Of a stretch of DNA of 64,000 nt, positions 12,879 through 54,835 are shown piece by piece. How positions within the stretch are numbered: position 1 is the stretch's first letter; the number at the start of each line of letters is the position of its first letter. The position numbers and the translations under genes were made by a program. The stretch comes from Clytia hemisphaerica (Eukaryota > Cnidaria > Hydrozoa > Leptothecata > Clytiidae). A model generated the notes under the pieces. The model was not told the DNA's origin and did no database searches. It was given only the letters and a program-made list of their open reading frames with translations. The stretch is from NCBI GenBank assembly GCA_902728285.1, contig CACVBU010000367.1:1240001-1304000 (forward strand), given 5' to 3'.

Positions 12879-13865
12879 GATGGTCAACCTGCATTAAATG
12901 CCAAGGAGGCGATCATTTCTGATAAGTCCCATATATCCAAACATGTATTAATACCAACATTGGAAGACCTCAACAAAAGTGTATTTGAAATACCAGGAAA
13001 ATCTCGCAGTGATTCATTTAGCCGTAAACAAGGCAACATTCAGCCAGCAGAATATACACCAGATTTAATTTTAAAGAAGAATAACCAAGAAATGTGGAAG
13101 AAACTTGATGAAGTGATGCTCACTAGAAGTACACAGACATCTATTGCAACAAAGGATGCCCACATTCAAACTGAATCTGATATTAAGATCTCGAAACCAT
13201 TGGCTATGAGCATGGCTACACAAACAGAAAACAAGAAAAGAAAATTACAGACAATACCTACCTTGGATTCCAACAACCACCATCAGAGTTCACTCAATCT
13301 TCTAGAATCCATGTCTAACATATTGCAAGAATATGTCAGTAAATATCTAGACGATATTTTCTTCTTCAAAGTGTACAGTCTAGTTGATTCCTTTCTCTAT
13401 CTACTCAAGGATGAACTTAACCTGGTTATTTCCACAACCACAGGGATTTTCCCTTTTCATTTAATGCTGGATTATGCTAATATCAAGAAATCAAATATCC
13501 CAAAGAACCTTCATAGTAACTTGAACCTCTATTACCAGGATGGCTTATTGAATTTGTTCAGCAAATGGCTTGGCATGCAGTTCTGTAACTTTAGATCCAC
13601 CATTTCCAACCAAATTGGTGAATATAAAAAATTGTTAATTCAGAGTAACCAATTTTTACCACCTGCTTTAAAAGTTTTGAACGAAGAAAAATTATTCCCA
13701 ATTTGTATGGTCATGTTTTTGAACCATTGGTTGAATAAGAGACTTGAGGATGAGGAGTTTCAATATTCTAAAATTTTGTTGGTTTTGGAATTGATGAATG
13801 ATGAATTGTTAACAGGTGTTGGTCACGTGGTCTATGCTAAGTTAAAAAGTATTCGATCGATGTGA
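12879..13865 (+). CDS. Unrecognised scaffold-like protein, long last exon (copy 1)
   Basis: From a good acceptor (TTCTTCTACAG) the frame runs to TGA at 13865, about 328 residues. The frame upstream of 12879 back to an ATG at 12777 overlaps the small exon and is probably not used. The first half is polar and holds three TQT-type motifs (RSTQTSI, AHIQTES, MATQTEN) of the sort bound by dynein light chain LC8. The second half is hydrophobic and helical (YLDDIFFFKVYSLVDSFLYL; LNEEKLFPICMVMFLNHWL) with no transmembrane pattern I would defend. It is repeated, with identical protein, at 16146-17132. Family and function unknown; a transposon origin is not excluded but no transposase or RT motif is visible. 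Confidence 0.55.
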   Translation, partial: DGQPALNAKEAIISDKSHISKHVLIPTLEDLNKSVFEIPGKSRSDSFSRKQGNIQPAEYTPDLILKKNNQEMWKKLDEVMLTRSTQTSIATKDAHIQTESDIKISKPLAMSMATQTENKKRKLQTIPTLDSNNHHQSSLNLLESMSNILQEYVSKYLDDIFFFKVYSLVDSFLYLLKDELNLVISTTTGIFPFHLMLDYANIKKSNIPKNLHSNLNLYYQDGLLNLFSKWLGMQFCNFRSTISNQIGEYKKLLIQSNQFLPPALKVLNEEKLFPICMVMFLNHWLNKRLEDEEFQYSKILLVLELMNDELLTGVGHVVYAKLKSIRSM

Positions 13866-13957
13866 TCATTTTGCATCACGTTTCATTGTAATTATACCTA
13901 CTTTGTACAGACAAGTTTTTCAAATATTTTTGGACCTACCTAAGGTAGTCCTTTAAA

Positions 13958-14585
13958 TTAACCCTTGTCCGTTCGTTCGTTCGTTCGTTCGTCTGTTCGT
14001 CTGTTGCCAGCTTTTCTCGGGATTGGCTCATTAGTTTTTTCTAATTTTTTGCACAATGATGCAAAATGGCAATGCCCAAAATGTGACGGAGCACGATTTT
14101 CGAAAAAAAAATTTTTCCGGCCAAAAATGGCGGAAATATGCTGGAAAAACTGGTTTTTCGGCATTTTCTCGAGATTTCATCATTAGTTTTTTCTGATTTT
14201 TTGCTCAAAGATGCGTATCAACAATGCCCAAAACATAGCCTAGTCCGATTTTTGAGAAAAAAATTTTTCCGGCCGAAAATGCCGGAAATCGCCGTTTTTC
14301 TGGATTTTCCTTAGACTTTTCCTTATAATTGGTTGTTTTTTCATTCAAAAAGATTATTAATAGCAATGCCCACCATCAAGCATGTTTCAATTTTCAATAA
14401 AATTGATATTTGAAGCCGGAACTTTCTAAAAATCGCCGGAACAGCCGATTTTCGCCGGAAAAACGGTATTTCTTGAATTTCTTGAGCTGTACTTTATATT
14501 TTTTCATGAAATTTTGCACACTGATGCAAAATGTCAATACCTAAATTGTGACGGAGCCCGATTTTCGAAAAAATTCATTTCCGGC
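13958..14585. repeat. 470-bp satellite, first block
   Basis: After a TTCG microsatellite (13973-14003), CCGG-rich sequence begins. Landmarks GCACAATGATGCAAAATGGC (14050) and GCACACTGATGCAAAATGTC (14515) recur about 466 bp apart. Inside, TTTTTCCGGCC.AAAATGCCGGAAAT segments form roughly 95-bp sub-repeats. Confidence 0.8.
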
Positions 14586-15914: not shown

Positions 15915-17852
15915 TTGTATTCAATTATTATAATTTCAAAGAGCAAATTGCGATTGTCAGGAGTTGTTTTGAGGAATGGTCAGCTATGGATATCACAGAC
16001 AAGTTACCACAATTTTTGAAAATTGATATGGGGGATATATTGAATGAGAAGTTTGAACCTGAAGTTATTGGTGAAAACCGAACTATTTGCTGCTGTAAAT
16101 GTATTGACAAACCAGGACAAACAACATAGTGATTTTCTTCTACAGGATGGTCAACCTGCATTAAATGCCAAGGAGGCGATCATTTCTGATAAGTCCCATA
16201 TATCCAAACATGTATTAATACCAACATTGGAAGACCTCAACAAAAGTGTATTTGAAATACCAGGAAAATCTCGCAGTGATTCATTTAGCCGTAAACAAGG
16301 CAACATTCAGCCAGCAGAATATACACCAGATTTAATTTTAAAGAAGAATAACCAAGAAATGTGGAAGAAACTTGATGAAGTGATGCTCACTAGAAGTACA
16401 CAGACATCTATTGCAACAAAGGATGCCCACATTCAAACTGAATCTGATATTAAGATCTCGAAACCATTGGCTATGAGCATGGCTACACAAACAGAAAACA
16501 AGAAAAGAAAATTACAGACAATACCTACCTTGGATTCCAACAACCACCATCAGAGTTCACTCAATCTTCTAGAATCCATGTCTAACATATTGCAAGAATA
16601 TGTCAGTAAATATCTAGACGATATTTTCTTCTTCAAAGTGTACAGTCTAGTTGATTCCTTTCTCTATCTACTCAAGGATGAACTTAACCTGGTTATTTCC
16701 ACAACCACAGGGATTTTCCCTTTTCATTTAATGCTGGATTATGCTAATATCAAGAAATCAAATATCCCAAAGAACCTTCATAGTAACTTGAACCTCTATT
16801 ACCAGGATGGCTTATTGAATTTGTTCAGCAAATGGCTTGGCATGCAGTTCTGTAACTTTAGATCCACCATTTCCAACCAAATTGGTGAATATAAAAAATT
16901 GTTAATTCAGAGTAACCAATTTTTACCACCTGCTTTAAAAGTTTTGAACGAAGAAAAATTATTCCCAATTTGTATGGTCATGTTTTTGAACCATTGGTTG
17001 AATAAGAGACTTGAGGATGAGGAGTTTCAATATTCTAAAATTTTGTTGGTTTTGGAATTGATGAATGATGAATTGTTAACAGGTGTTGGTCACGTGGTCT
17101 ATGCTAAGTTAAAAAGTATTCGATCGATGTGATCATTTTGCATCACGTTTCATTGTAATTATACCTACTTTGTACAGACAAGTTTTTCAAATATTTTTGG
17201 ACCTACCTAAGGTAGTCCTTTAAATTAACCCTTGTCCGTTCGTTCGTTCGTTCGTTCGTCTGTTCGTCTGTTGCCAGCTTTTCTCGGGATTGGCTCATTA
17301 GTTTTTTCTAATTTTTTGCACAATGATGCAAAATGGCAATGCCCAAAATGTGACGGAGCACGATTTTCGAAAAAAAAATTTTTCCGGCCAAAAATGGCGG
17401 AAATATGCTGGAAAAACTGGTTTTTCGGCATTTTCTCGAGATTTCATCATTAGTTTTTTCTGATTTTTTGCTCAAAGATGCGTATCAACAATGCCCAAAA
17501 CATAGCCTAGTCCGATTTTTGAGAAAAAAATTTTTCCGGCCGAAAATGCCGGAAATCGCCGTTTTTCTGGATTTTCCTTAGACTTTTCCGTATAATTGGT
17601 TGTTTTTTCATTCAAAAAGATTATTAATAGCAATGCCCACCATCAAGCATGTTTCAATTTTCAATAAAATTGATATTTGAAGCCGGAACTTTCTAAAAAT
17701 CGCCGGAACAGCCGATTTTCGCCGGAAAAACGGTATTTCTTGAATTTCTTGAGCTGTACTTTATATTTTTTCATGAAATTTTGCACACTGATGCAAAATG
17801 TCAATACCTAAATTGTGACGGAGTCCGATTTTCGAAAAAATTCATTTCCGGC
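15915..17852 (+). repeat. Segmental duplication, copy 2 (1,938 bp)
   Basis: Near-exact copy of 12648-14585. It lacks the upstream exon at 12346-12666, so this gene copy begins inside the intron and is 5'-truncated unless spliced from elsewhere. Beyond 17852 the satellite continues with further units, whereas copy 1 switches to unrelated sequence at 14586. Confidence 0.95.
16146..17132 (+). CDS. Unrecognised scaffold-like protein, long last exon (copy 2)
   Basis: Same protein as 12879-13865, with the same acceptor (CTACAG ending 16145), same TQT motifs and same stop. The small exon candidate corresponds to 15944-16070. Because the upstream exon is missing from this copy, it could serve as an alternative terminal exon of the gene starting near 12346, or be a silent copy. 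Confidence 0.5.
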   Translation, partial: DGQPALNAKEAIISDKSHISKHVLIPTLEDLNKSVFEIPGKSRSDSFSRKQGNIQPAEYTPDLILKKNNQEMWKKLDEVMLTRSTQTSIATKDAHIQTESDIKISKPLAMSMATQTENKKRKLQTIPTLDSNNHHQSSLNLLESMSNILQEYVSKYLDDIFFFKVYSLVDSFLYLLKDELNLVISTTTGIFPFHLMLDYANIKKSNIPKNLHSNLNLYYQDGLLNLFSKWLGMQFCNFRSTISNQIGEYKKLLIQSNQFLPPALKVLNEEKLFPICMVMFLNHWLNKRLEDEEFQYSKILLVLELMNDELLTGVGHVVYAKLKSIRSM

Positions 17853-19342: not shown

Positions 19343-22300
19343 TCATGGATTCTGGTTGGTGTAACAACCAGTTGATGGGTCGTAAAATTGACGTGCTTTA
19401 CGAACGCGGCTTGATTGACGTGTTGGCTGACATGGAGTTGTGACTGTCTCTTCATTCGGAGTGCGAGACAGTGGAGTGATGATAGGTGACCTGATGAGTT
19501 CTTCTGGGGTGGGGGAAGCTGGCTCGTCTTGCTGTGACTGGTTGCCACGCGCTTCCTTGTCATCATGGATGGCAGGTGTAACTGGTGCTGGTGTAGGTGT
19601 GGTTAGTTGGCAGAATGGTGTCGAGCTTGTGGGGATCGGTGGTACATGCTGGAGATGTTTGTAATGGTTAACTGTTGGCGGTGATGATTCCTTGATCTTG
19701 CGAAGAAAGCGTCTGTTTCTTGGTGTAAGACGTCCAGTACCAGAAATTTTGACGATGTACTGGTCGTTTGGCTTGATCTCCATAACCACACCAATGCGAT
19801 CCCATTTACGTGGTGTCGATCCATGCTGATTTTGTACGAATACTCTGTCATTGATCTGGAGTGGTGGTAATGCACGCGAGTGCTCATTCAGGGTGATGAG
19901 CTTCTTGTCATATTGCTGCCGCATGGTTTTCTCTTTCGATTGCCAAAGGTTCCTCCATTGATCTTGAAATTGCAGGTTCTCAAAGCTGATCAGGTCTTTC
20001 TTGATGTAGGGAAGAGTGTCGCGAAGTGCACGTCCAAAGAGGATCTGGGCTGGTGAAAGCTTGCTGATCGGGTCTGGAGTGTTTCTTTGAGTGAGTAGAG
20101 CCTGTACCATCTTGTCGGTGTTGAGGTTGCCATCTTGTCCGACATTCTCCATCAGTAAACGCTTGGTTGATTTGACTGCAAGTTCTGCTCTACCATTTGA
20201 TGATGGGAAGTAGGCTGATGATACCCTGTGGCGGACTCCCCATCGTTGTAGGAAATCTTCGGTTTGCTTGGCAGTAAATTCAGGGCCACCATCACTAGCA
20301 ACTTCAACAGGTACACCGAAAGTTGAGAAGAGCGAGCGAAGAGCATTGCAGAGACCTTTGGAACCAGAGTTGCCTTCAGTTGCTTTTATGCGGCTTTGTT
20401 CCGTCCAACCTGATAATCGGTCAGCTGCTACAAAGTAATACCAGCCACAAAAAAGAAAGTAATCACATACGATACCCTCGAAGGGTGTGGTCGGGATCCA
20501 GGGTTCAATGGGTGGTTGTCGTGGTTGAGATGGAGCGATCTTGTTGCATGGGGCACATCTCATTCTTGTCTCATTGATGTCGTTGGTGATACCTGGCCAG
20601 AAGATAGCAGATTTGGCTCTCTCGTTCATTGCAGAGGTGCCTTGATGAGCCGCGTGAAGGGATAGAAGAGTTTCCTGGCGTAGATTGTAAGGGATGGTGA
20701 CACGGTCCTCCATCATGATTACACCATCGAGGGTCCATAGTTTAGATCGAAGATTCCAATATGGTTGCAGCTGGGCCTGCAGGTTTGATCTGTTGGATGG
20801 AAATCCTGACTCAATGGTTTGCATGAGGGACAACATCTCATCATCAGAAGCGGTTTCAGACTTGATGATGTCCCAAGTGATTGCACGGATGTTGGAAGCA
20901 GCCGAGACGTAGAGAGCTGTGAGTTCAGCGTCGATATCGTCGTCTTCATCTGAGTCGTCTTCATCTTCTGGGTTGTTGACAGGACTCCGTGATGTAGCGT
21001 TTGCGAAATGATTGGACTTGCCTGGTAAATGTTTGATTTTGAATCGCCATGGCAGTGTGCGTTGTTTTAATTTGAGGAGTCTTGTGTTTGAAATTTCGTC
21101 AAGGGTGTGGTCTCCAAGGACTTTTGTTAGTGGTTTATGGTCGGTAACAACCAGCAAACCGTCGCAACCGAGAGTGAAGAATTTGGTTTGCTTTAGGGCA
21201 TAGACGATGGCGAGAGCTTCACCTTCCACCGGGGCGTACCGCGTTTCAGCTGGTTTAAGGAATCTTGATCCCGCCAGGGTGATTTTCCATCCATCTTTGC
21301 AGCAGTCTGGTGTCAGTGATGTGCAATCGCAGTGTTTTTGACATAGGTAGAAGCCAATTCCTGTCTTGGACCAATCAGGGCGAAGGCATGTTGGTTTTTG
21401 CATATCGAAAATTTCTACGCCATTCTTGATTGCTTCAATGATGATGTCTTTTGATGACTGGAAAGCAGATTCGAGTTCGTCGGACCAAGAGAATTGTGAC
21501 TTGGGGCTGAGGAGTGGTTTGAATGGGGCCATAACGTCTGTCAATTTAGCGTAATGACCAACTTGGTTAACTAGCCCAAACCATGAACGAATGTCACTGA
21601 GCTTGGTGGGTGTGGGGAAGTCTCTTATTGCTCTGAGAAACTTCTCAAGGGGACGGATTTCGCTCTCGGTCACTTCGAATCCTGCGAATTGGACTTCTCG
21701 CTTTGCAAACTGGAATTTGGATTCGTTCAGCACGATGCCATTTTCACCGACAAGCTGGAGGAAATCAATGACTCGCCACCAGTGATCAGAGAGTTCATTA
21801 TCCCACATTACGGTGTCATCAACACACTTGGTTTTGCGTGGGACGTCCTTGATGATCTCATCGAATCTCCTTGCATAACCGTCTCCACTGGCTAGGAATC
21901 CTTGTGGGGCTGTTTTGTATCTGAATCTTCCCCATGGTGTTAGAAATGTGGTGAGATGACGGTCGTCAGGGTGAATTGGAACTGAGTGGTAACCATTCCA
22001 CGCATCGGTTACAGTCTTCCATGTCATGGGTGGAATTGATTTGGCTTGCTGGAAAGGTGGTTGGACGTGGTGGGTTTCACGCAAGCAGTGTTTGTTGAGG
22101 GGTGAAAGGTCAACTGTTCTTCTGGGTTTACCATCCGGCTTACGTACAATAATCATACGGTGACACCATTCGGAAGGTTCTCCCATTGGAACCTCTTCGA
22201 GTACCCCTAGTGCGACATCGTCCTTGATTTGCTGTTCAACTTCAGCTTGCCAGTGCAGTGGCACTGGAATTGGTTTGTGGATAGATGATGGTGTAGCATC

Positions 22301-23452
22301 TGGGTTGACGTGCAATCTGATTTCAGGGCCAGACATGCCTGGGAGTTGTTGGTGAGGGCACTTGTTGAATGTTGATGCTGCATAACGCTGGATTAACCAG
22401 TCCCTCATCTTGTTGTTATTCTCTGGCGTGGCGTTGAATGGGAGCTTGTCTGGACGGCTTGGAGGTAGAGTACGTTTAGGACAGCCGCAAGAATTCTTCG
22501 TATGTTCAATAGCAGATATGTCAGCTGAACCGATTTTTGGGAAGCCTTCTGGGATGATACCGAGTTGGACACAAGCATAACGTGAAAGGTAGAAGTTTCC
22601 AGCGTCTGGACTGATATATGCCATAACAGGAGCTGTGTAGGAGTTTCCATGAATGTCACGGCCCTCAAGTCGTAAGAATATTGCGCCAGAAATGTTTATC
22701 TCTTCCTTGTTTGCTGTTGAAAGTGTTCGTTTCACAGGGAAGAGGTCACGGTCAGTGAAGCCGGAGCGATAGAACTCGTGTTGGCTCCATAAACAAGATT
22801 GAGCCCCAGTGTCTGTTACAACAGTGACAAGTGAGGGGTTTACTTTAGGACATTCAACCCCAAACTTTTCATAATCGTCCTTGTTCACAGAGAGTTCAAG
22901 TTCAAGCGTTGGGTGTTTCACAGATGAGGCTTGCTTCCATCCGGTTGTTGTGAAAATGTGGTGATCAAGGAGAATCGTTTTATGTCGTCGGGTGTTGGCG
23001 CTGACCTCAAGGTTATTGCTTGCAATTATAACTACCCTGGTTTCGTTTTGATGATCTTTCCTCCTGTCTGTTGTAGGTGGCAGGTTATTGGAAGGTTTTC
23101 GTGGGTTTGCTTGCTTCCAGCATGGCAAGCAGAGAGTTACTTCTATCATCTTGCGTTGACGTTTGTTATATGTAAATCTATCAATCTCAGTTTTACAGTT
23201 CTTACATTTTCTTTTGTCAGTTTTATTTTGTCTAATACCAGCATGCTGGATTTGTTTGTTTAAGGCATCACGTGCCATCTCTTTAGATTCAATAAAAGCA
23301 ACAGTGTCTTTTACACTTTTGGTATCAAGATCTGACCATCCGAGTATATCTTTTCGGATATCATCATCAGATAATCCGGAAATTAAAACGTCTTTGACGA
23401 TTTCATCAGTGAAGTCAACTTGGGAGTCACAGTCATTATTCGGACAGTTCAT
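19343..23452 (-). CDS. Pol polyprotein of Ty3-type retrotransposon (PR-RT-RH-IN)
   Basis: 1,369 codons from the first ATG after the LINE; the frame is open further upstream to the LINE tail. A Cys-rich knuckle-like region (CKNC...CLPC) lies at 83-111. Protease DTGA is at 214-217; RT spans about 395-600 with CVDD at 543-546 in place of YVDD. RNase H acidic residues are D693, E743 and D771, but the usual fourth Asp is Asn in FANATSR (about 818). Integrase has an HHCC finger (H933, H936, C966, C969), catalytic D997, D1054 and E1090, then a C-terminal strand-rich region. No chromodomain is evident. The enzyme set is uninterrupted, but Gag is broken, so the copy should depend on other copies for particles. 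Confidence 0.93.
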   Translation of the reverse strand: MNCPNNDCDSQVDFTDEIVKDVLISGLSDDDIRKDILGWSDLDTKSVKDTVAFIESKEMARDALNKQIQHAGIRQNKTDKRKCKNCKTEIDRFTYNKRQRKMIEVTLCLPCWKQANPRKPSNNLPPTTDRRKDHQNETRVVIIASNNLEVSANTRRHKTILLDHHIFTTTGWKQASSVKHPTLELELSVNKDDYEKFGVECPKVNPSLVTVVTDTGAQSCLWSQHEFYRSGFTDRDLFPVKRTLSTANKEEINISGAIFLRLEGRDIHGNSYTAPVMAYISPDAGNFYLSRYACVQLGIIPEGFPKIGSADISAIEHTKNSCGCPKRTLPPSRPDKLPFNATPENNNKMRDWLIQRYAASTFNKCPHQQLPGMSGPEIRLHVNPDATPSSIHKPIPVPLHWQAEVEQQIKDDVALGVLEEVPMGEPSEWCHRMIIVRKPDGKPRRTVDLSPLNKHCLRETHHVQPPFQQAKSIPPMTWKTVTDAWNGYHSVPIHPDDRHLTTFLTPWGRFRYKTAPQGFLASGDGYARRFDEIIKDVPRKTKCVDDTVMWDNELSDHWWRVIDFLQLVGENGIVLNESKFQFAKREVQFAGFEVTESEIRPLEKFLRAIRDFPTPTKLSDIRSWFGLVNQVGHYAKLTDVMAPFKPLLSPKSQFSWSDELESAFQSSKDIIIEAIKNGVEIFDMQKPTCLRPDWSKTGIGFYLCQKHCDCTSLTPDCCKDGWKITLAGSRFLKPAETRYAPVEGEALAIVYALKQTKFFTLGCDGLLVVTDHKPLTKVLGDHTLDEISNTRLLKLKQRTLPWRFKIKHLPGKSNHFANATSRSPVNNPEDEDDSDEDDDIDAELTALYVSAASNIRAITWDIIKSETASDDEMLSLMQTIESGFPSNRSNLQAQLQPYWNLRSKLWTLDGVIMMEDRVTIPYNLRQETLLSLHAAHQGTSAMNERAKSAIFWPGITNDINETRMRCAPCNKIAPSQPRQPPIEPWIPTTPFEGIVCDYFLFCGWYYFVAADRLSGWTEQSRIKATEGNSGSKGLCNALRSLFSTFGVPVEVASDGGPEFTAKQTEDFLQRWGVRHRVSSAYFPSSNGRAELAVKSTKRLLMENVGQDGNLNTDKMVQALLTQRNTPDPISKLSPAQILFGRALRDTLPYIKKDLISFENLQFQDQWRNLWQSKEKTMRQQYDKKLITLNEHSRALPPLQINDRVFVQNQHGSTPRKWDRIGVVMEIKPNDQYIVKISGTGRLTPRNRRFLRKIKESSPPTVNHYKHLQHVPPIPTSSTPFCQLTTPTPAPVTPAIHDDKEARGNQSQQDEPASPTPEELIRSPIITPLSRTPNEETVTTPCQPTRQSSRVRKARQFYDPSTGCYTNQNP

Positions 23453-30679: not shown

Positions 30680-31470
30680 ATCCAACCTAGTCCACTGTTA
30701 AACAATCCAACCTATAGTCATGTCCAGTTCACTGTTTAACAATCCAACCTAGTCCACTGTTAAACAATCTGACCTAGTCCACAGTTAAACAATCCAACCT
30801 AGTCCACTGTTAAACAATCTGACCTAGTCCACTGTTAAACAATCCAACCTAGTCCACTGTTAAACAATCCAGCCTATAGTCATGTCCGGTCCACTGTTTA
30901 ACAATCCAACCTAGTCCACTGTTAAACAATCCAACCTAGTCCACTGTTAAACAATCCAACCTATAGTCATGTCCGGTCCACTGTTTAACAATCCAACCTA
31001 GTCCACTGTTTAACAATCCAACCTATAGTCATGTCCAGTCCACTGCTTAACAATCCAACCTAGTCCACTGTTAAACAATCCAACCTAGTGCACTGTTTAA
31101 CAGTTCAACCTAGTCCACTGTTAAACAATCCTACCTAGTCCACTGTTTAACAATCCAACCTAGTCCACTGTTAAACAATCCAACCTAGTCCACTGTTTAA
31201 CAGTTCAACCTAGTCCACTGTTTAACAATCCAACCTAGTCCACTGTTAAACAATCCAACCTATAGTCATGTCCGGTCCACTGTTTAACAATCCAACCTAG
31301 TCCACTGTTTAACAATCCAACCTATAGTCATGTCCAGTCCACTGTTTAACAATCCAACCTAGTCCACTGTTTAACAATTCAACCTAGTCCATTGATAAAC
31401 AATCCAATCTATCCATGTCCGGTCCACTGTTAAACAATTTAACCTAGTCCACTGATAAACAATCCAACCT
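30680..31470. repeat. 25-bp satellite, left arm
   Basis: About 30 units of CCTAGTCCACTGTTAAACAA+TCCAA, with interspersed 37-bp variants containing TATAGTCATGTCCGGTCCAC. Variation is mostly TTAAAC/TTTAAC. It is the inverse of the array at 39449-40580. Confidence 0.95.
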
Positions 31471-31541
31471 ACTCAACAATCCAATCCTTTCCTTCGAGGA
31501 TTGGCCATATTAATGACCTTATTTCGAAATTTCCAATCTGT

Positions 31542-38164: not shown

Positions 38165-39450
38165 TGCGTTGTTACTAAAAGAGGTAACGAGTGGTAACGA
38201 TGTGGTAACGAGGTGGTAACGAGGTAACCAGTTAAAAGCGGTGGCCCTAAGGGCTGTAATTTTGAATAACTCGATTCTGGTGAATGTAGAGCAGGACTTA
38301 ATGTTTCTAGTGAATGTGATAGTGGAGTCGATGGTCCTGTTGAATGTGCAGCAGGGGTTGGTGGTTCTGGTGAATGTGCAGCTGAATATGGTGGTTTTGA
38401 TGATTGTGCAGCAGGAGTTGGTGGCTCTGGTGAACGTGATAGTTGAGTTGATGGTTCTGGTGAATGTGATAGTGGAGTTGGTGGTCCTTGTGATTCTGCA
38501 GCAGAACATGATTGTTCTGTTGATTCTGCGATATGAACTGGTGACTTTGCAACAGAACCTTGTTGTTCTGGTGATTCTGCAACAAAACCTAAAGGATCTG
38601 GTTATTCTGAAGCAGCAACTTGTGATTATGGTGATTATGCAGCAGGAACTGGTTGTTCTGGTGGTTATGCAACAGATCCTTGTGGTTATAAAGGTTCTAC
38701 AGAAATACATGTCGGTTCTGATGCTTCTTAGCACAAAACTGTTAGTTTTGGTAGATCTACATCAGGACTTGGGATGGATGGATTATCATGATTTTCGAAC
38801 ATGTTGTATTCAGGTGTTTGACAGTTTTCTATAGGGCTAGAATTGTGATAAATGCTATCTAAAGACATTAACAACTGTCAGTGTTTGACTTATTTTGCCA
38901 GATACCTAATACTAGTAATAATGTGTTGGCTTATAGGTTTGGACTATAAGCTCCACCATTACATCCACAAGGAACTGAAACTCCTGCTACACAATCATAT
39001 GCACTCCAACTTCATCAGCAACTCAAACTCCAACGTTGCATTCAACAGAACCATCAACTCCACCATCACATTCACCAGTACCGGTATATTCACCAGAACC
39101 ATCAACTCCTGCCTCCAATTCACCAAAAACACCAATCCCTGCTGCTAATTCAACAGAATCACCGACTCCTTATGCACATTCACCAGAACCACCAACTCCA
39201 TGATCACATTTACCAGAACCACCAACTCCTGCTGTACAATCATCAAAACCACCAACTTCGGCTGCACATTCACCAGAACCACCAACCCCTGCTGCACATT
39301 CAACAGGAACACCAACTCCACTATCACATTCACTAGAAGCATTAAGTCCTGCTCTACATTCACCAGTATCGAGTTATTCAAAATTAGAGCCCTTAGGGCC
39401 ACCGCTTTTAACTGGTTACCACCTCGTTACCACCTCGTTACCACTTGTTT
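38165..39450. repeat. Inverted 30-bp minisatellite core of foldback element
   Basis: GGTAACGA repeats (38180-38225) and a 30-bp minisatellite (GTGCAGCAGGAGTTGGTGG+TTCTGGTGAAT) run to about 38690; the inverse runs 39085-39450. The two arms share CGGTGGCCCTAAGGGCT and GAATAACTCGAT. The spacer 38740-39000 is unique. The period is ten codons, so long spurious open frames appear on both strands. Confidence 0.9.
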
Positions 39451-40710
39451 AACAGTGGACTAGCTCAAATTGTTTAACAGTGGACCGTACATGACTATAG
39501 GTTAAATTGTTAAACAGTGGACTAGGTAGGATTGTTTAACAGTGGACTAGGTCAAATTGTTTAACAGTGGACCGGACATGACTATAGGTTTGATTGTTAA
39601 ACAGTGGACTAGGTAGGATTGTTAAACAGTGGACTAGGTTGGATTGTTAAACAGTGGACTAGGTTGGATTGTTAAACAGTGGACTAGGTTGGATTGTTAA
39701 ACAGTGGACTAGGTTGGATTGATAAACAGTGGACTAGGTTGGATTGTTTAACAGTGAACCGGACATGGCTAGGTTGGATTGTTAAACAGTGGACTAGGTA
39801 GGATTGTTTAACAGTAAACCGGACATGACTATTGGTTAAATTGTTAAACAGTGGACTAGGTAGGATTGTTTAACAGTGGACTAGGTCAAATTGTTTAACA
39901 GTGGACCGGACTTGATTATAGGTAGGATTGTTAAACAGTGGACTAGGTAGGATTGTTTAACAGTGAACCGGACATGACTATAGGTTTGATTGTTAAACAG
40001 TGGACTAGGTAGGATTGTTAAACAATGGACTAGGTTGGATTGTTAAACAGTGGACTAGGTTGGATTGTCAAACAGTGGACTAGGTTGGATTGTTAAACAG
40101 TGGACTAGGTTGGATTGATAAACAGTGGACTAGGTAGGATTGTTTAACAGTTGACTAGGTCAGATTGTTTAACAGTGAATCGGACATGACTATAGGTTAA
40201 ATTGTTAAACAGTGGATTAGGTTGGATTGATTAACAGTGGACTAGGTCAAATTGTTTAACAGTGGACCGGACACATGACTATAGGTTGGATTGTTAAACA
40301 GTGGACTAGGCAGGATTGTTAATCAGTGGACTAGGTTGGATTGTTAAACATTGGACTAGGTTGGATTGTTTAACAGTGGACTAGGTTGGATTGTTAAACA
40401 GTTGACTAGGTTGGATTGTTAAACAGTGGACTAGGTTGGATTGTTAAACAGTGGACTAGGTAGGATTGTTTAACAGTGGACTAGGTTGGATTGTTAAACA
40501 GTTGACTAGGTTGGATTGTTAAACAGTGGACTAGGTTGGATTGTTAAACAGTGAACCGGACATGGCTAGGTTGAATTGTTTAACAGTGAAATACTTTCTG
40601 GTCTGTATTTTATAACATTATTAGGTTAAACGAAATTAGGTTATATTCTTTAACAGTGCTCTCCACTACTAAAGAATCCAACCAGTGACCACGCTAACTG
40701 CACCTGATCC
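39449..40710. repeat. 25-bp satellite and terminal sequence, right arm
   Basis: About 45 units of GGTTGGATTGTTAAACAGTG+GACTA, the inverse of the left array, then about 145 bp of unique terminal sequence (40567-40710) mirroring 30546-30690. Confidence 0.95.
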
Positions 40711-46500: not shown

Positions 46501-46944
46501 TTAATGAGAGTTTCTTGTTGATGAAACTGACTTTCAATATTATCAAATAATGGCGCGTATTTAGAGAGTATTGACAAAATCCGATAATTTGTGTATTTAT
46601 TTGTTCAAACGATTTATATAGGGTCATAAAAAGATTTTTTGATTAAAACCTATGTCTATGTATGTTTTAATGTAAGATTTTTTTAATAGTATTTTTTAAA
46701 GAAATTTGAGCAAGTTTTGTATCTGGTTACAGAATTCAATTTGCAAAATTATTAAACATTCCAGCAAACTTCCTACGCTGTTTGTTGATTGACTGGATTT
46801 TCATTTTCTGGTAGATTATGTTTTTGGCGTGTGATCAAGGTTTCAACATTAACGAGTTTTCTTTTTTGTGGAAATAATTCAGAGGAAGGATTTTACAGAA
46901 CACTTGTTTGAGTTTGTAATGCGGTGATGTAGTGTTGATAAACT

Positions 46945-47592
46945 TGTGACACGGGTATTTTATCTGCGTATGACAAGACTGAATGGTCAGACCCTAGTTC
47001 TTCCTAAAGTGTCACGCAATCCGAGTTCAAACAGGTAGCTTTCGCACGATCTATATATGAAGATATAGAAAGGCCAAGACACAAGAAACTGACAAGATAG
47101 ATCTCCACTTAGAGATATAAAATAAAAAGTATTATTTTGAATTAGAACTTGTTACAAAGATGACGATTAGAAAATCAAATAAAACCTACTTAGTATATTA
47201 GTCTCTATCTTCCAGACGTGTGGTATATGATAGCGTTATTCCGTTCAGATATAAGTCATCCGTTCAGACATAAGTCGTCCGATGTGAACTGTAGTTGCGA
47301 GATCTTGTTGCGCTTTACTTCACGACCGTTCTCCTTTTCTCCGTTCTTCTTCTTTCCCTTTCGTTTTCTGTCTCCGGTTATCTCTCTCTTCTGTCATGTT
47401 TTTGGGTCCTATTTATATCATTTTTCTGATATGCAATTTCACTATGGATTGTCGTTAGGACCCGGACGGAAGTCGTTTTGTGTATTATATAACGTCGTTT
47501 ATGGGGCCTAGCGGAAGTGTCGTTAGCCCCCAAATTGATTTCCTGTTTTTTAGCAATTAATGTTTCTTATTACATGAAAACGCTTCATCACA
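46945..47592 (-). repeat. 3' LTR
   Basis: Almost identical to 52429-53075. I noted G/A at about 46995, a C/T near 46969 and one extra base near 47411. Confidence 0.95.
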
Positions 47593-47604
47593 CTCCTCCC
47601 AACC
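47593..47604 (-). promoter_or_regulatory. Polypurine tract
   Basis: GGTTGGGAGGAG directly precedes the 3' LTR start TGTGATG on the minus strand; it would prime plus-strand DNA synthesis. Confidence 0.7.
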
Positions 47605-47810
47605 ATAGCGTACTGATGTCCTCATCAGTTCATAAGTTCATCATAGGCGGTTATTTATTAAATACGAAATTAATGTTAGTTTAGTTAAAGCTAGCAGCAT
47701 TGCTTAGTAAAAAAAAGGAAATTAAAATAAAATCTTCGTCTAAAACGAGTATCGTTTGGGTCCTTCAACGTGCCATCAATCATCTTGGTTACGGATACGA
47801 TTTCATTTCG

Positions 47811-50800
47811 TTAACAAAAATATCTTTTTCGAGTGTTTATCACTTGGAGTCTTTGTTTGATGAAAAATTTTTCTTTGCAGTTTTCATAATTTTGATTTGT
47901 TTCAACGTGGATGAAAGGCTTGCCTTGCTTTCTTGATTTCGTTTTTTCATTATTTGTGAAATTGAAATTCGGTGGGTAAGGTTGAGGAACCGGATCGGAT
48001 GGAAAAGGAACAGGAACAGGTGTATTACAATAAGGGGGAGCAGGATCAAGTAGACCAAGTGGAGCAGAATCAGGTGGAACAGGATCAAGTCGATTGGGAA
48101 TAGGCGGATCAGGAACAGGTGCATCGTAATTCGGTGGATCAGGATCGCATGGATCAGGAGCAGGTGGATCACAATCATGTGGTACATGAACAGGTGGAAC
48201 AGGATCAGGATCAGATGGAACAGGAACAGATGGAACAGGATCAGGTAGACCAAATGGAACAGAATCAGGTGGATCAGGATCAGGTGGCTCAGGATCAAGT
48301 GGATTGGGAACAGGCGGATCAGGAACAGGTGCATCAGGATCAAGTGGATCGGGAACAGGTGGAACAGGATCAGTTGGAACAGAATCAGGTGGATCAGGAT
48401 CAGGTGGATCAAGATCAAGTGGATTGGGAACAGGTGGATCAGGAACAGGTGCATCAGGATCAAGTGGATCGGGAACAGGTGGAACAGCATCAGTTGGAAC
48501 AGAATCAGGTGGATCAGGATCAGGTGCATCAGGATCAGGTGCATCAGGATCAAGTGGATCGGGAACAGGTGGAACAGGATCAGTTGGAACAGAATCAGGT
48601 GGATCAGGATCAGGTGGATCAAGATCAAGTGGATTGGGAACAGGTGGATCAGGAACAGGTGCATCAGGATCAAGTGGATCGGGAACAGGTGGAACAGCAT
48701 CAGTTGGAACAGAATCAGGTGGATCAGGATCAGGTGGATCAGGATCAAGTGGATTGGGAACAGGCGGATCAGGAACAGGTGGATCAGGATCAAGTGGATC
48801 AGGAACAGGTGGAACAGCATCAGTTAGAACAGAATCAGGTGGATCAGGACCAGGTGGATCAGGATCAAGTGCATCAAATGGATCAGGATCAGATGGGTCA
48901 TAATCAGATGGATCATAATCAGGTGCATCATAATGAGGTGCATCATAATGAGGTGGATTAGGATAAAATGGGACAGGAACAGGTGGATTAGGCTCAGGCA
49001 GATTAAATGGCACAGAATCAGGTTGATCAGGATCAAGTTGATCGGGAACAGGCGAATCAGGATCAAGTGCATCATAATCAGGTAGATTAGGATAAGGTGT
49101 GGCCGGAACAGGTGGGTCAGGAACAGGTGAATCATAATCAGGTGCATCGCAGTCAGGTGGATCACAATAAAATTGAACAGGAACAGGTGCATCGTAATCA
49201 GGTGGAACAGGATCAGGTGGATCATGATCAGGTGAAACATTGGCTGGAATAGGATTCGAATAGTCGTCTTCGAGAATAAGGGTTGGCAATATAATCTCAT
49301 TTTTGCATTTAGGTTGATCTTTACGTTCTGTAGAATACTTTTTGAAAACATGTTTCAGGAATTGATAATCTGCAGCAGTTTTCTCCCATGATTCCGAGTA
49401 CGGAACAAAGTTATCTTCATTGTTTTCGAAATTATTTTGAAGGTTTTTCGGTTCGCTTGCTTTGATGAGGCAGTTATGGTTGGCAGGGTAACTGGAATGA
49501 TTTCTGCTCTGGTGAGAGTCGCTTCCTCTGGCTTTGTTGTTGTGATTGTCGTCGTAAGGGTCATCGTGGCGGTGGTTGTTCGGAAAATGGTTGTCGTCGT
49601 AGGGATCATCGTGGCGGTGGTTTTTCGGAAAATAGTTGTCGTCGTAAGGATCATCGTGGCGGTGGTTGTTCGGAAAATGGTTGTCGTCGTAGGGGCCATC
49701 GTGGCGGTGGTTGTTCGGAAAATGGTTGTCGTCGTAGGGATCATCGTGACGGTGGTTGTTCGGACAATGATTGTCGTCGTAGGGGCCATCGTGACGGTGG
49801 TTGTTCGGACAATGATTGTCGTCGTAGGGGCCATCGTGACGGTGGTTGTTCGGACAATGATTGTCGTCGTAGGGATCATCGTGGCGGTGGTTGTTCGGAC
49901 AATGATTGTCGTCGTAGGGGCCATCGTGACGGTGGTTGTTCGGACAATGATTGTCGTCGTAGGGGCCATCGTGACGGTGGTTGTTCGGACAATGATTGTC
50001 GTCGTAGGGGCCATCGTGACGGTGGTTGTTCGGACAATGATTGTCGTCGTAGGGGCCATCGTGACGGTGGTTGTTCGGACAATGATTGTCGTCGTAGGGG
50101 CCATCGTGACGGTGGTTGTTCGGACAATGATTGTCGTCGTAGGGGCCATCGTGACGGTGGTTGTTCGGACAATGATTCTCGTCGTAGGGGCCATCGTGAC
50201 GGTGGTTGTTCGGACAATGATTCTCGTCGTAGGGGCCATCGTGACGGTGGTTGTTCGGACAATGATTGTCGTCGTAGGGGCCATCGTGACGGTGGTTGTT
50301 CGGACAATGATTGTCGTCGTAGGGGCCATCGTGACGGTGGTTGTTCGGACAATGATTGTCGTCGTAGGGGCCATCGTGACGGTGGTTGTTCGGACAATGA
50401 TTGTCGTCGTAGGGGCCATCGTGACGGTGGTTGTTCGGACAATGATTCTCGTCGTAGGGGCCATCGTGACGGTGGTTGTTCGGACAATGATTCTCGTCGT
50501 AGGGGCCATCGTGACGGTGGTTGTTCGGACAATGATTGTCGTCGTAGGGGCCATCGTGACGGTGGTTGTTCGGACAATGATTCTCGTCGTAGGGGCCATC
50601 GTGACGGTGGTTGTTCGGACAATGATTGTCGTCGTAGGGATCATCGTGACGGTGGTTGTTCGGACAATGATTCTCGTCGTAGGGGCCATCGTGACGGTGG
50701 TTGTTCGGACAATGATTCTCGTCGTAGGGGCCATCGTGACGGTGGTTGTTCGGACAATGATTCTCGTCGTAGGGGCCATCGTGACGGTGGTTGTTCGGAC

Positions 50801-51415
50801 AATGATTGTCGTCGTAGGGGCATCGTGACGGTGGTTGTTCGGACAATGATTCTCGTCGTAGGGGCCATCGTGACGGTGGTTGTTCGGACAATGATTGTCG
50901 TCGTAGGGATCATCGTGACGGTGGTTGTTCGGACAATGATTCTCGTCGTAGGGATCATCGTGACGGTGGTTGTTCGGACAATGATTCTCGTCGTAGGGGC
51001 CATCGTGATAAAGGAGGTAATGTTGTTTATTCATGGTGTAATCTTTGTAATGAAGTAGAGGATGGTCATCAGGATAGTCGTAAGGAGGATTTGTGTCATC
51101 ATAATTGTCGTAGTAGTAATAGTGGTTGTCCGTATCGCCGTTGTATTGGTGTTGATGAATGAAGTCATCGTGGTATGGATGTTTTTCATGATTGTTGTAG
51201 TGATCATTGTAAGCGTGGGTGTCGTATTGGGAATTCCAGTGGTGATCTTCATAATCATCGTCAAAGTAGTTTTTGTCGTCATATGGGTCGTGGAGTGAGT
51301 TTTCATTCTGGTTTCTTCTTTGGGCGGCAGCATCGGCATTACGTTGTTGTACGTCTGCCAACTCTCTTCTCAACTGCTGTATTTTTCGAATACATAATAC
51401 ATGTTCGAGATCCAT
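47811..51415 (-). CDS. Cys/His- and Pro/Asp-repeat protein of LTR element (one frameshift)
   Basis: Starts at ATG 51415 (MDLEHVLCIRKIQQLRRELA), a short coiled-coil-like, Gag-like N-terminus followed by a His/Asp/Tyr-rich stretch. Then about 30 copies of a 15-residue unit, PYDDNHCPNNHRHDG (one Cys and three His each, 45 bp). A linker (about 49250-49550; SESWEKTAADYQFLKHVFKK) follows, then a Pro/Asp repeat (DPDPPVPDP type, about 48000-49250) and a basic tail ending at 47811. A single C is missing at 50820/50821 compared with all other units, so the N-terminal 198 codons and the remaining roughly 1,000 lie in different frames. Both flanks of the lesion use the same repeat frame, so this is one gene. 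No known domain recognised; zinc or RNA binding is only a guess from composition. Confidence 0.8.
48000..49250 (-). repeat. 18-bp coding repeat (Pro/Asp) with higher-order units
   Basis: GGATCAGGATCAGGTGGA-type words on the plus strand. Higher-order blocks of roughly 160-200 bp around GGAACAGAATCAGGTGGATC recur several times between 48360 and 48860. Confidence 0.9.
49556..51005 (-). repeat. 45-bp tandem array, about 32 units
   Basis: The unit (plus strand) is ATGATTGTCGTCGTAGGGGC+CATCGTGACGGTGGTTGTTCGGACA. Variants: GATTCT/GATTGT (Glu/Asp), GGATCA/GGGCCA (Asp/Gly) and, in the leftmost units, GGCGGTGG and GGAAAATGG. Neighbouring units are often identical, indicating recent homogenisation. Because 45 is divisible by three and the unit lacks stops in several frames, long spurious open frames occur on both strands. 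Confidence 0.95.
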
Positions 51416-51862
51416 CGCGCTTACTAAAAGAGAGATAAAATCCCGAGAAATATTCTGTTCTATTTGAAGAAAATTTTTGAAAGCATGATTGTTTTAGAAA
51501 AATGACGTCACTCACGTCACAAAGAAAATTTTGTAAATATGTAAGAAGGAAGTAAATTTCTCTTGTAAAAAATATTTTACTACGTTTAATAAGATTCAAT
51601 TAAAAAATTCTATTTCTCCTCTCTCCTGTATTCAATAATTATACATTTTTTTCTCAACAAATTCATCAATTAAAATTACCTTCAGGAGAGAAATCACAAA
51701 TTAAAATAACAAGTATTGCAAAATTAACAAACGCAGTATCGTGTAAATGACAAAATAAAGTTTTTCCTTCAAATCAATTAATTCAATTTAGCCTGGATAT
51801 CCAAGCTCAAAATTTAAGAAAAAACAAAATTTACCTCAACATACAAAGTTCTTAAATTATAG

Positions 51863-52251
51863 AGCTTGGTCTCCCTAGAGAATGAAAGTGAAAACCCATG
51901 TTTCCTAGCCAACCCAGGGCAGCAAAACAGAAATTAATAAAAAGCAGTCTTACAAGATCTAAAACTATTAAAAACATCCAAAGATTACACCAAAGTCCAT
52001 AAAAAAGTTTGCATGCATTATCATGACCAACCATGTTTTCTTGGAAAATGAACTTGCCTCTGTTTTCTTCTTTTTCATGTTTTCGTGTAACAGAAAGCCC
52101 TATCTTCACTAGCAGCTGGAGGACTATCCTATTTTTGTTTCAGAATGCTCCACGCCGTGTAGATTGGTCCTTACGGCTTTAGCAAAGTGAGCGCAAGCAA
52201 GCGGACTGCATTCTCATACGAGAATGCAAAACGCTCTAGGGAGACCAGGCT
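51863..52251. mobile_element. MITE in leader of LTR element
   Basis: Inverted ends AGCTTGGTCTCCCTAGAG (51863) and AGCCTGGTCTCCCTAGAG (inverse, ending 52251). Nearby CTGGATATCCAAGC (51796) and CTGGATATCCAGGC (52302) flank it and may be an older surrounding element. Non-coding. Confidence 0.7.
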
Positions 52252-52409
52252 GTAAATCAGAACATAAAATATCTAAAACTAGACTGTGAAATAATTTACA
52301 GCCTGGATATCCAGGCTAAATTCAATTTTGTTTAGTCGTGAGCTTGCAAAATCTTTCTAAATAAACAAGTATACAAAAATTTGTTCAGATAAAACAGCGG
52401 CTACCAGAG

Positions 52410-52427
52410 ATCTCGGTAGAACCTCCA
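52410..52427 (-). promoter_or_regulatory. Primer-binding site, tRNA-Gln-like
   Basis: TGGAGGTTCTACCGAGAT starts with TGG (complement of CCA) one base from the LTR. It complements, with one wobble, the tRNA-Gln 3' end as I know it from animals. Confidence 0.65.
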
Positions 52428-52428
52428 G

Positions 52429-53075
52429 TGTGACACGGGTATTTTATCTGTGTATGACAAGACTGAATGGTCAGACCCTAATTCTTCCTAAAGTGTCACG
52501 CAATCCGAGTTCAAACAGGTAGCTTTCGCACGATCTATATATGAAGATATAGAAAGGCCAAGACACAAGAAACTGACAAGATAGATCTCCACTTAGAGAT
52601 ATAAAATAAAAAGTATTATTTTGAATTAGAACTTGTTACAAAGATGACGATTAGAAAATCAAATAAAACCTACTTAGTATATTAGTCTCTATCTTCCAGA
52701 CGTGTGGTATATGATAGCGTTATTCCGTTCAGATATAAGTCATCCGTTCAGACATAAGTCGTCCGATGTGAACTGTAGTTGCGAGATCTTGTTGCGCTTT
52801 ACTTCACGACCGTTCTCCTTTTCTCCGTTCTTCTTCTTTCCCTTTCGTTTTCTGTCTCCGGTTATCTCTCTCTTCTGTCATGTTTTTGGGTCCTTTTATA
52901 TCATTTTTCTGATATGCAATTTCACTATGGATTGTCGTTAGGACCCGGACGGAAGTCGTTTTGTGTATTATATAACGTCGTTTATGGGGCCTAGCGGAAG
53001 TGTCGTTAGCCCCCAAATTGATTTCCTGTTTTTTAGCAATTAATGTTTCTTATTACATGAAAACGCTTCATCACA
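52429..53075 (-). repeat. 5' LTR
   Basis: Contains TGATATAAAAGGACCC on the minus strand (about 52890-52906), a good TATA box position for retroelement transcription. Confidence 0.95.
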
Positions 53076-53972
53076 AACTGATAAGTGGTTTCTGTATGGG
53101 TAGAAAGTCTTGAGTGACAAGTCAGTTTATTTTTATATCCTCTAATAAGTTTCATTGCGGTTTTTCTCCTTAAAGTTACATTATAACAATCATTTCTATA
53201 ACACTATAACATCCGAGCTTAAGAATTTTGTGGTCTTCACAAAACTGGGTTTACACTATGATGAAGGTTTTCCTAAGGGGTTGTTTCCACTTTGAATACA
53301 TATCGTCGGTTCCTCATCTTTGAAATTAATATCGGCATGGTGTAAAAAGTCACGAAAAATGAAAAATGATTGACTCCTATGGGGTGTACTTCTTTTCTCT
53401 ATAACTTTGGGAGAAGGGAAGAATTCTAAAGAAACAGTTCACTTTGTTATACAATGTTTCATCTACAAGAGGAGAAAGAGAGATTCTTCTCAATGTTGCG
53501 AAATGAAAATATTGTGGAAAATTTCGTGCAGCTTCGCTGGTTAATATCACAGCATGATTTTTCAATATACAATATCCTTGAACTAAAAAAAAAAGAGAGA
53601 ACCAAAAAGTCATGACTCAAAACCACCCTCTGTTATATGTTATGGGATGCCAATGAAAGATTAATTTTTCCATCTATTCAGTATAATTGAAGTTATTCAT
53701 TTTACCCCATTACTAATTGATTTCCTTTTTTCATTGACAGAATTTGAAAACTGAATTGTTGAATCGTGAAAGAACACTATTGAAGGAATTGAAAGACGTC
53801 AAAGTTGCGTTCGTTACGCACTCTTGGATCGGTTACAAACACAGCCCGAAATAGTCATTTACGCAGAAGAAAAAAATCGAAAAGTTTTGATTTGTCATAT
53901 TCACAATTCTTTTGGTTGGGTTTGAGAAAGTTGGTATGCTATAAATTTTCGTTTGGTTGAAAAACTGTAATC
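53076..53972. other. 5' flank of RGM gene
   Basis: Non-coding. TTTCATTGACAG at 53731-53742 is a plausible 3' splice site of a 5'-UTR exon that would carry the start codon at 53973. No promoter assigned. Confidence 0.45.
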
Positions 53973-54701
53973 ATGAAATTCTACGCTATATTTGTATGTT
54001 GTATGGTTACAATAATAAACCTGGAGCTATGTTACGCCCAAAAAGAACCGCCTGCTGACAGTCAGCGTCGCCCGCGACCACCACTCATCGAAAAACCAAA
54101 TCTAGTTGAAGAAAAAGAAACTACGTCAAACGCTAACGAGAAGTCGACAGAGTTGGAAAAATCCGTGAAAAAGACGTCGCGCCGTGACTACAACAAACTG
54201 TGTAATATTTGTAGACAAATGTATATCATGTCGGATAAAGAATTTGAAGAGAAGAAAGATGTAGACAAGTTTTGTGTTCGCGTGAAGCAAGTTATGGAGT
54301 GCATGGCTTACCTGAAGAAAGAGCGTATCCAATGTGGCATGTTCTTCAACCTTGTCTTTCGTACGGGTGTTTTTATTCAGAACCGAAAACACAAATGCGA
54401 CGAACGCAACATCACAGTTGGCGACTTGGACAGTATTTTCAATAAGCGGGAAACGGAAAGTACAGAACGAGTGAACGTCGGTCAAAATTGCCGATACCGA
54501 AAACGTAATACTACACAAAGCAAACTTAAATACTGCGGGATGTTTGGAGACCCGCACTTAAAAACATTCTTAGGTGTTCGACAAACTTGTATCGTTGAAG
54601 GGACATGGACACTACTTGATAATGAGTATATGAAAGTGGAAGTCACCAATCGCATGGTTCAAAATGTTGATGTGTCTAGAGCCGCAACAGCAACCGAAAA
54701 G
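53973..54701 (+). CDS. Repulsive guidance molecule (RGM/hemojuvelin family), first coding exon
   Basis: 243 codons ending K|GTATTA, phase 0. Residues 1-22 form a signal peptide (MKFYAIFVCCMVTIINLELC). A low-complexity polar segment (23-70) precedes the RGM N-terminal domain (about 75-175; Cys 77, 80, 101, 110, 121, 142, 173). The partial von Willebrand D domain opens with CGMFGDPHLKTF at 188-199. GDPH is the conserved site where RGMs self-cleave between Asp193 and Pro194. CIVEGTWTLLDNEYMKVEVT and RAATATEK match the RGM family order. RGMs are GPI-anchored ligands of neogenin and BMP co-receptors. NIT at 146-148 is a potential N-glycosylation site. Confidence 0.93.
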
Positions 54702-54835
54702 GTATTAACTTTTGATTGCTTTTTATCTCTCTATCATGTCTCTCTTTCTCATGTCTGTTTGTATATATTTGTCCTCGTGATCTCCAAATTACGCACTGGT
54801 ATCCGTCAAAATGGATAGAATATATTTGTCATTTT

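What the first reader, a model, noticed from the sequence alone, without database searches (positions are those of the whole stretch)
46945..53075. Young LTR retrotransposon whose only gene is a giant Cys/His- and Pro/Asp-repeat protein
Nearly identical 648/647-bp LTRs, a 4-bp target duplication, a tRNA-like primer site and a polypurine tract all place the element on the minus strand, and the single long gene is in sense orientation. No retroviral enzyme is present. Non-autonomous LTR elements usually lack coding capacity or carry remnants of gag/pol; one with an apparently maintained protein built from about 30 CxH repeats and a Pro/Asp domain is unusual. It could be a modified Gag, an acquired host gene, or a selfish scaffold that helps packaging. 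Sequence shows the structure; function is inference.
Basis: partly seen in the sequence, partly recalled or inferred. Interest (0 to 1): 0.85.

Follow-up and report, generated by a model that had tools for sequence, protein, structure and literature searches.

The report
Parasitic retrotransposon carrying a repeat-rich gene
A young jumping gene in an animal lacks its own copying enzymes, apparently borrows those of a retrovirus-like relative, and carries where its capsid gene should be a huge repetitive gene of unknown role, which is frame-broken in both copies found.

Summary
The element is real: 647/648-bp LTRs with 2 substitutions and 1 indel, AGTT target duplication, tRNA-Gln primer site, polypurine tract. 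In the 417-Mb host assembly the repeat gene was found at two loci, the window and C523, both young insertions with their own target duplications. The same LTR, primer site, tract and adjoining hairpin occur in a 10.5-kb Ty3/Gypsy-type element (C170) with gag, protease, RT, integrase-chromodomain and a viral fusion-glycoprotein gene. Its pre-gag leader is homologous to the leader before the repeat gene, so that gene sits in gag's place. Best reading: a non-autonomous satellite moved in trans by a C170-type element, with LTR segments recombining. Non-repeat parts look coding-derived, but purifying selection is weak at best (non-coding interior diverges no more than coding), and the Pro/Asp array shows no sign of it. 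No similarity to C170 Gag, to Pfam (in the pieces scanned) or to another host locus was found. Wheat Sabrina elements with GAG replaced by unrelated ORFs are close precedent.

The parts
52429..53075 (-). 5' LTR, 647 bp, TG...CA; TATA-like box near 52900
46945..47592 (-). 3' LTR, 648 bp; TATA-like box near 47417, where the 1-bp length difference between the two LTRs lies
53076..53079 (.). target-site duplication AGTT, 5' side of the element (minus-strand reading)
46941..46944 (.). target-site duplication AGTT, 3' side of the element
52410..52427 (-). primer-binding site, 18 nt, complementary to the 3' end of tRNA-Gln(TTG) plus CCA
51789..52318 (.). 530-bp insert in the leader with about 35-bp terminal inverted repeats and a 9-bp duplication AATTGAATT; absent from the C523 copy
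51424..51781 (-). leader just upstream of the gene, 66% identical (E = 2e-32) to the leader just upstream of gag in C170; both end in a T-rich tract plus AG
49355..51415 (-). ORF from ATG 51415: about 137 non-repeat residues, four DPYD...CPNNHRH units, then the Thr-rich frame of the array; 686 aa
49543..51008 (-). array of 45-bp (15-codon) units, 32.6 copies by TRF
50819..50862 (-). 44-bp unit that shifts the frame
47811..50891 (-). second ORF (the TTG start is only mechanical): most of the array in the DPYD frame, a non-repeat middle, the Pro/Asp array and a basic tail
49242..49544 (-). non-repeat middle piece, 101 aa, found at only two loci of the genome
48059..49234 (-). 15-bp repeat array coding Pro/Asp in this frame
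47612..47629 (-). ACTGATG AGGA CATCAGT inverted repeat (hairpin by inspection, not folded), part of the flank shared with C523, C170, C97 and two C40 copies
47593..47604 (-). polypurine tract GGTTGGGAGGAG

Best explanation
A non-autonomous (satellite) LTR retrotransposon that parasitises an env-bearing, chromodomain Ty3/Gypsy-type element of the C170 kind. It keeps what is needed in cis: LTR promoter and ends, tRNA-Gln primer site, leader, a hairpin-containing flank and the polypurine tract. Gag, protease, RT and integrase are supplied in trans. A repeat-rich gene of unknown origin occupies the gag position. Shown: anatomy, shared cis signals, youth, two independent insertions, LTR mosaicism. 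Inferred: mobilisation in trans, exchange of LTR segments by template switching or conversion, and that the protein is now dispensable for spreading and behaves mainly as repeat-driven, frame-unstable interior sequence.
For: LTR search of the own genome: 51 matches (40 of 43 candidates scored, a lower bound); three loci have a same-strand pair of full-length LTR matches: window, C523 and C170. Each has its own 4-bp duplication (AGTT, GTAT, ATAA) and 2, 2 and 1 substitutions between its LTRs. The first 18 bases after the LTR (17 of the 18 primer-site bases) and the 12-base tract are identical in all three, and the tract with its hairpin recurs at C97 and twice in C40. C170 carries Retrotrans_gag, retropepsin, RVT_1, integrase, chromodomain and Monjiviricetes fusion-glycoprotein matches; C97 carries env and C40 IN and env remnants next to the same LTR. 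Leader homology directly upstream of gag and of the repeat gene. Window and C523 LTRs differ at 38/643 sites (MAFFT; 30/643 by another alignment) but the interior outside the 45-bp array at 32/2306 (p = 2e-9, or 3e-6 with the lower count), and the window LTR lies 2% from C170. LTR segments 0-200, 200-400 and 500-600 give different nearest relatives.
Against: No RNase H match was found in the seven C170 ORFs scanned, and its reading frames are interrupted; it was the only close PR-RT copy among 78 scored of 720 candidates, so no intact helper was seen. Only two copies of the satellite were found. Non-repeat parts are stop-free in one frame beyond chance, and N/S change (13/1273 vs 9/350 sites) leans to constraint, so the protein may matter. 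Different divergence in LTR and interior could have causes other than recombination.
Confidence: 0.75

Rival explanations
1. (About the gene, compatible with the satellite reading.) The repeat gene encodes a maintained protein that helps the satellite spread, for instance a coiled-coil plus disordered, His/Asp-rich RNA- or Gag-binding scaffold in Gag's place; the frame breaks are assembly errors.
For: Three non-repeat pieces are stop-free in the frame (0 of 2000 shuffles, 0.0055 and 0.02); the gene sits behind a gag-type leader; one helix, residues 3-40, then low confidence, in a single-sequence prediction; the C-terminal ORF runs open to the same stop in both copies although its length differs by 513 bases, a multiple of three; the shared 44-bp unit form GATGCC versus GATGGCC in both copies could be a context-specific error.
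Against: Frame-shifting units in both copies; weak N/S signal, and neither coding versus non-coding (p = 0.85) nor non-synonymous versus non-coding change (p = 0.39) differs; Pro/Asp array varies least at third codon positions.
Confidence: 0.2
2. The gene is a host gene captured by the element.
For: No supported similarity to Gag, Pol or Env pieces of C170 and no Pfam family in the pieces scanned.
Against: tblastn of N-terminal, middle and tail pieces and a pattern search for the array unit find only the two element copies in 417 Mb.
Confidence: 0.08
3. The gene is a strongly diverged gag that kept an N-terminal coiled coil and an acidic/Tyr-rich region and expanded its repeats.
For: Same position and leader as gag; C170's second gag ORF also has an acidic Tyr-rich stretch; best alignment score 75.
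Against: 42 of 300 composition shuffles reach that score; no Retrotrans_gag or zinc-knuckle match in the pieces.
Confidence: 0.15
4. The interior was never a gene: non-coding filler whose tandem repeats happen to be open in several frames.
For: Several frames of the arrays are open, on both strands; no third-position excess; coding and non-coding interior diverge alike.
Against: Each of the three non-repeat pieces is stop-free in only one of six frames, the one that agrees with the repeats, beyond shuffles.
Confidence: 0.2

Closest known systems
RLG_Sabrina NA variants of wheat (PMC9744471; sections 2.7 and 2.8 and passages read)
   Same: Non-autonomous Gypsy LTR elements in which GAG-Pro is replaced by different sequences coding short proteins, four of them without homology to other wheat proteins; primer site and LTR 5' ends shared with the presumed autonomous partner. 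For RLC_Angela the same paper reports LTR and internal trees that conflict, with gene conversion or template switching proposed.
   Different: Plant, many copies, short proteins, minimal homology to the partner; here an animal, two copies found, 97% LTR identity with the partner, and a very long tandem-repeat gene.
Retand elements with arrays of tandem repeats and additional ORFs (PMC11963269; abstract and passages read)
   Same: LTR element interior expanded by tandem repeats and carrying extra ORFs; some copies non-autonomous.
   Different: Plant; repeats lie between pol and the 3' LTR, extra ORFs mainly antisense; here sense, in gag's place, with no pol.
Gypsy elements associated with Jingchuvirales glycoproteins (PMC10084718, outline and abstract read)
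   Same: Gypsy sequence associated with a glycoprotein of negative-strand RNA virus type, like C170.
   Different: Relevant to the presumed helper only; the satellite has no env.
TRIM/LARD-type non-autonomous LTR elements (search listing only; e.g. PMC3532108, PMC4558846)
   Same: LTR elements without pol that keep LTR, primer site and polypurine tract (recalled).
   Different: TRIMs are small; LARDs are recalled as long and non-coding; this element has a coding-derived repeat gene.

Membership tests
LTR retrotransposon | Two near-identical LTRs with TG...CA ends and a short target duplication | tested here: met
LTR retrotransposon | tRNA primer site after the 5' LTR and polypurine tract before the 3' LTR | tested here: met
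Ty3/Gypsy (C170 relative) | Order gag, PR, RT, IN; 4-bp duplication | tested here: met
   no RNase H match in the seven ORFs scanned
Ty3/Gypsy (C170 relative) | Placement in an RT tree | not tested
   no tree was built
Non-autonomous satellite of that family | Shared LTR, primer site, tract and leader with an element that has gag-pol | tested here: met
Non-autonomous satellite of that family | Mobilisation in trans by the partner's proteins | not testable with these tools
   only inferred from shared signals and youth
Sabrina-NA-like (gag replaced by an unrelated ORF) | ORF without detectable homology to gag lies in the gag position | tested here: met
   absence of similarity is not proof of non-homology
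Sabrina-NA-like (gag replaced by an unrelated ORF) | Replacing ORF intact in copies | tested here: not met
   frame-shifting units in 2 of 2 copies in the assembly; read errors not excluded. So I say it is built like a Sabrina-NA element, not that it is one.
Modified Gag | Sequence similarity to gag or zinc knuckle | tested here: not met
Captured host gene | Homologous locus outside the element | tested here: not met

The most novel reading that the evidence does not exclude
A retrotransposon counterpart of a satellite virus: the element lost all enzymes but replaced Gag with its own giant modular protein (coiled-coil head, about 30 CPNNHRH metal-binding-like modules, Pro/Asp rod, basic tail) that biases packaging or reverse transcription in a shared helper particle toward itself, with array length evolving by slippage and the frame breaks being assembly errors.
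Probability: 0.1. Interest if true: 0.8.

Novelty: new variant of a known kind. Interest (0 to 1): 0.42.

Why it matters
Non-autonomous LTR elements that put an unrelated ORF in gag's place are documented in wheat (PMC9744471). An animal case with a matched env-bearing relative in the same genome, few young copies and clean cis signals lets one ask what a satellite retroelement must keep. If the repeat protein proved translated and selected, it would be a new sort of selfish structural protein; if not, it shows a tandem-repeat gene losing frame while the element still moves.

Tried and rejected
Modified Gag, by local alignment of three gene pieces against six C170 protein pieces, 300 shuffles each: rejected on sequence. 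Captured host gene, by three tblastn searches and one pattern search of the genome: no other locus. RNA family in the element: 0 matches in Rfam at E up to 1 over 46900-53100. Relatives of the N-terminal and middle pieces in IMG/VR: none; no eukaryotic collection was on hand. Fold prediction of the N-terminal 193 aa: mean pLDDT 53, one helix at residues 3-40; not worth a fold search. C355: only a leader relic starting at the primer site, no gene. C394: LTR pieces that by coordinates are one LTR split by about 4 kb; C294: two partial LTR pieces about 4 kb apart; longest ORFs 109 and 90 aa. Partial LTR matches at other contigs (for example C207, C792, C635, C531) were not examined. C40: the stretch also holds another Gypsy-like element with its own 96.5% LTR pair; no intact partner for this LTR seen there. 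dN/dS: 140 + 95 + 307 codons were compared; 176 window codons absent from C523, 7 C523 codons without partner and the whole 45-bp array were left out. Literature searches for coding or repeat-rich non-autonomous LTR elements (open-licence PMC only) gave the wheat and Retand precedents; no animal case like this appeared in the rows listed, which were capped in most of these searches. Bdelloid LTR elements with captured ORFs (PMC5408684) were seen in a listing only; Troyka (PMC12440569) by abstract only, judged not relevant (3-bp duplications, other termini).
Full report
Setting. The window is G000:C261:1240001-1304000 of a 417-Mb assembly in 951 contigs. An ORF at 53973-54818 matches RGM proteins of the PDB (best E = 6e-14), so the host is taken to be an animal; I did not identify the species.

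Anatomy. On the minus strand the element runs 53075 to 46945. The LTRs are 647 and 648 bp with 2 substitutions and one 1-bp indel, the indel lying in a TATA-like box. AGTT flanks both ends. The primer site is the complement of the 3' end of tRNA-Gln(TTG): the 20-base tRNA end has 70 matches in the genome, and ARAGORN calls tRNA-Gln(ttg) at the matched place in the 3 loci scanned of 6 fetched. The tract GGTTGGGAGGAG abuts the 3' LTR.

The gene is not one ORF. The ATG at 51415 opens about 137 non-repeat codons, then four 15-codon units, then a 44-bp unit (50819-50862) moves the reading into a Thr-rich frame that stops at 49355. The other frame holds the remaining units, a non-repeat middle, the Pro/Asp array and a basic tail, and stops at 47811. 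Of 33 units found, 31 are 45 bp, one is 44, and the last, degenerate one was cut at 43 by the end of the stretch scanned. In C523, of 29 pieces found, 20 are 45 bp and nine have other lengths (44 four times, 42, 37, 47, 89, 74); its fifth unit, 44 bp, has the same GATGCC form as the window's fourth. This is either inherited or a context-specific sequencing error; I cannot tell.

Is it coding-derived? The three non-repeat pieces are free of stops in the frame that agrees with the repeats, and in none of their five other frames: 0 of 2000 dinucleotide shuffles match this for the N-terminal piece (405 bases), 0.0055 for the middle (303) and 0.02 for the tail (246). Against present constraint: over 542 codons compared between the two copies (140 + 95 + 307) there are 13 non-synonymous changes at 1273 sites and 9 synonymous at 350, Fisher p = 0.036 without allowing for transition bias. 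Non-coding interior differs at 3/100 (next to the primer site), 4/363 (leader) and 3/217 (3' region), in sum 10/680, against 22/1626 for the coding pieces (p = 0.85); non-synonymous change alone is not rarer than non-coding change (p = 0.39). In the Pro/Asp array third codon positions are the least variable at all 13 lags tested, opposite to what protein constraint gives, though higher-order repeats make these counts non-independent. No Pfam match in the 193-aa N-terminal and 577-aa C-terminal pieces. AlphaFold2 on the N-terminal 193 aa (single sequence) gives one confident helix, residues 3-40, then low confidence.

Family in the genome. The LTR finds 51 matches, 40 of 43 candidates scored, so a lower bound. 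Three loci have a same-strand pair of full-length matches: the window, C523 (5 kb) and C170 (10.5 kb). Each has its own 4-bp duplication (AGTT, GTAT, ATAA) and within-element LTR differences of 2, 2 and 1 substitutions. C197 is a solo LTR with GTAT on both sides. C97 (env) and C40 (IN and env) carry remnants of the C170 kind beside the same LTR. Several partial LTR matches were not examined. The N-terminal, middle and tail pieces each have exactly two hits at E <= 0.001, window and C523. The array-unit pattern with up to 3 mismatches has 57 hits, all in those two loci, and 0 in the reversed control.

The presumed helper. C170 has Retrotrans_gag, retropepsin, RVT_1, integrase core, chromodomain, and a Monjiviricetes fusion-glycoprotein match. 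In the assembly no RNase H match was found in its seven scanned ORFs, and gag and pol are split over several ORFs. Its PR-RT has no close relative among 78 scored of 720 candidates, the other matches being 28-58% identical. So an intact helper was not seen; the youth of the three insertions implies recent activity somewhere (inference).

Gag's place. The leader just upstream of the repeat gene (51781-51424) is 66% identical over 375 columns, E = 2e-32, to the leader just upstream of C170 gag, and both end in a T-rich stretch plus AG. Beyond it I found no supported similarity: the N-terminal piece versus the second gag ORF scores 75, reached by 42 of 300 shuffles, and none of the other 17 comparisons is better supported.

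LTR exchange. Window and C523 5' LTRs differ at 38/643 sites in the MAFFT alignment, 30/643 in a pairwise one; the interior outside the 45-bp array differs at 32/2306. With either count the LTR is more diverged (p = 2e-9 and 3e-6; against non-coding interior alone 1e-5 and 7e-4). An earlier count that left out the 3/100 piece gave 29/2206. In 100-column steps C523 matches C170 in the first 200 columns (1/196 differences) while the window differs from both there (7/196 and 8/196); the window matches C170 in columns 200-400 (2/199) while C523 differs from the window at 26/196; and the window equals C523 in columns 500-600 (0/100) while C170 differs at 3/100. Mosaic LTRs over a conserved interior fit template switching or conversion, as proposed for wheat Angela elements (PMC9744471, passages).

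Comparison. Wheat Sabrina NA variants have GAG-Pro replaced by unrelated sequence coding short proteins (PMC9744471 section 2.7). Section 2.8 lists five criteria for a partner: similar population structure, same activity period, same primer site, conserved LTR termini, similar promoter. Here primer site, termini and LTR similarity are met and all three insertions are young; population structure cannot be tested with so few copies. Retand elements carry tandem arrays and extra ORFs (PMC11963269, passages). The present element is a variant of this kind in an animal with an unusually long repeat gene.

Verdict. The element and its unusual content are real, but 'apparently maintained protein' is not shown; the simplest account is a satellite element with a repeat gene that is losing frame. 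Interest 0.42.

Noticed in passing
window 51789-52318: 530-bp insert with about 35-bp terminal inverted repeats and a 9-bp duplication inside the element's leader; absent in C523; end pieces also match C478 sequence (locus L035). Looks like a small non-autonomous DNA transposon.
   Followed up: partly
L009 9275-9973 (C170): The first gag ORF of the helper-like element shows no Met in its 233 residues (save the mechanical GTG start) and opens at a T-rich AG, which suggests that a spliced or otherwise supplied start may be used.
   Followed up: no
L009 1613-2788 (C170): ORF downstream of the fusion-glycoprotein ORF has a hydrophobic stretch and weak, below-cut-off aspartyl-protease matches (E 0.0012): a possible second protease in the env region.
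   Followed up: no
window 12648-14322 and 15915-17589: Exact 1675-bp direct duplication at lag 3267 carrying an identical 362-aa ORF without Pfam match.
   Followed up: partly
window 2-5894: Two minus-strand ORFs with Helitron_like_N, a sub-cut-off OTU match and PIF1 helicase: a Helitron reaching the window edge.
   Followed up: partly
window 19343-23452: 1369-aa ORF with RT, RNase H and integrase matches: another LTR-type element.
   Followed up: partly
window 53973-54818: RGM-like ORF begins about 0.9 kb from the element's 5' end, on the opposite strand.
   Followed up: partly
window 30726-31471 and 39445-40553: Arrays of a 25-bp unit in opposite orientation, flanking about 8 kb that also holds 30-bp repeat stretches near 38275 and 39088.
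   Followed up: no
G000 C940:10795-37485 and C291:70740-77893: tRNA-Gln ends recur mostly every 400 bp on C940 and about every 1.2 kb on C291; on C291 with tRNA-Ser and tRNA-Val genes: tandem tRNA gene arrays.
   Followed up: partly
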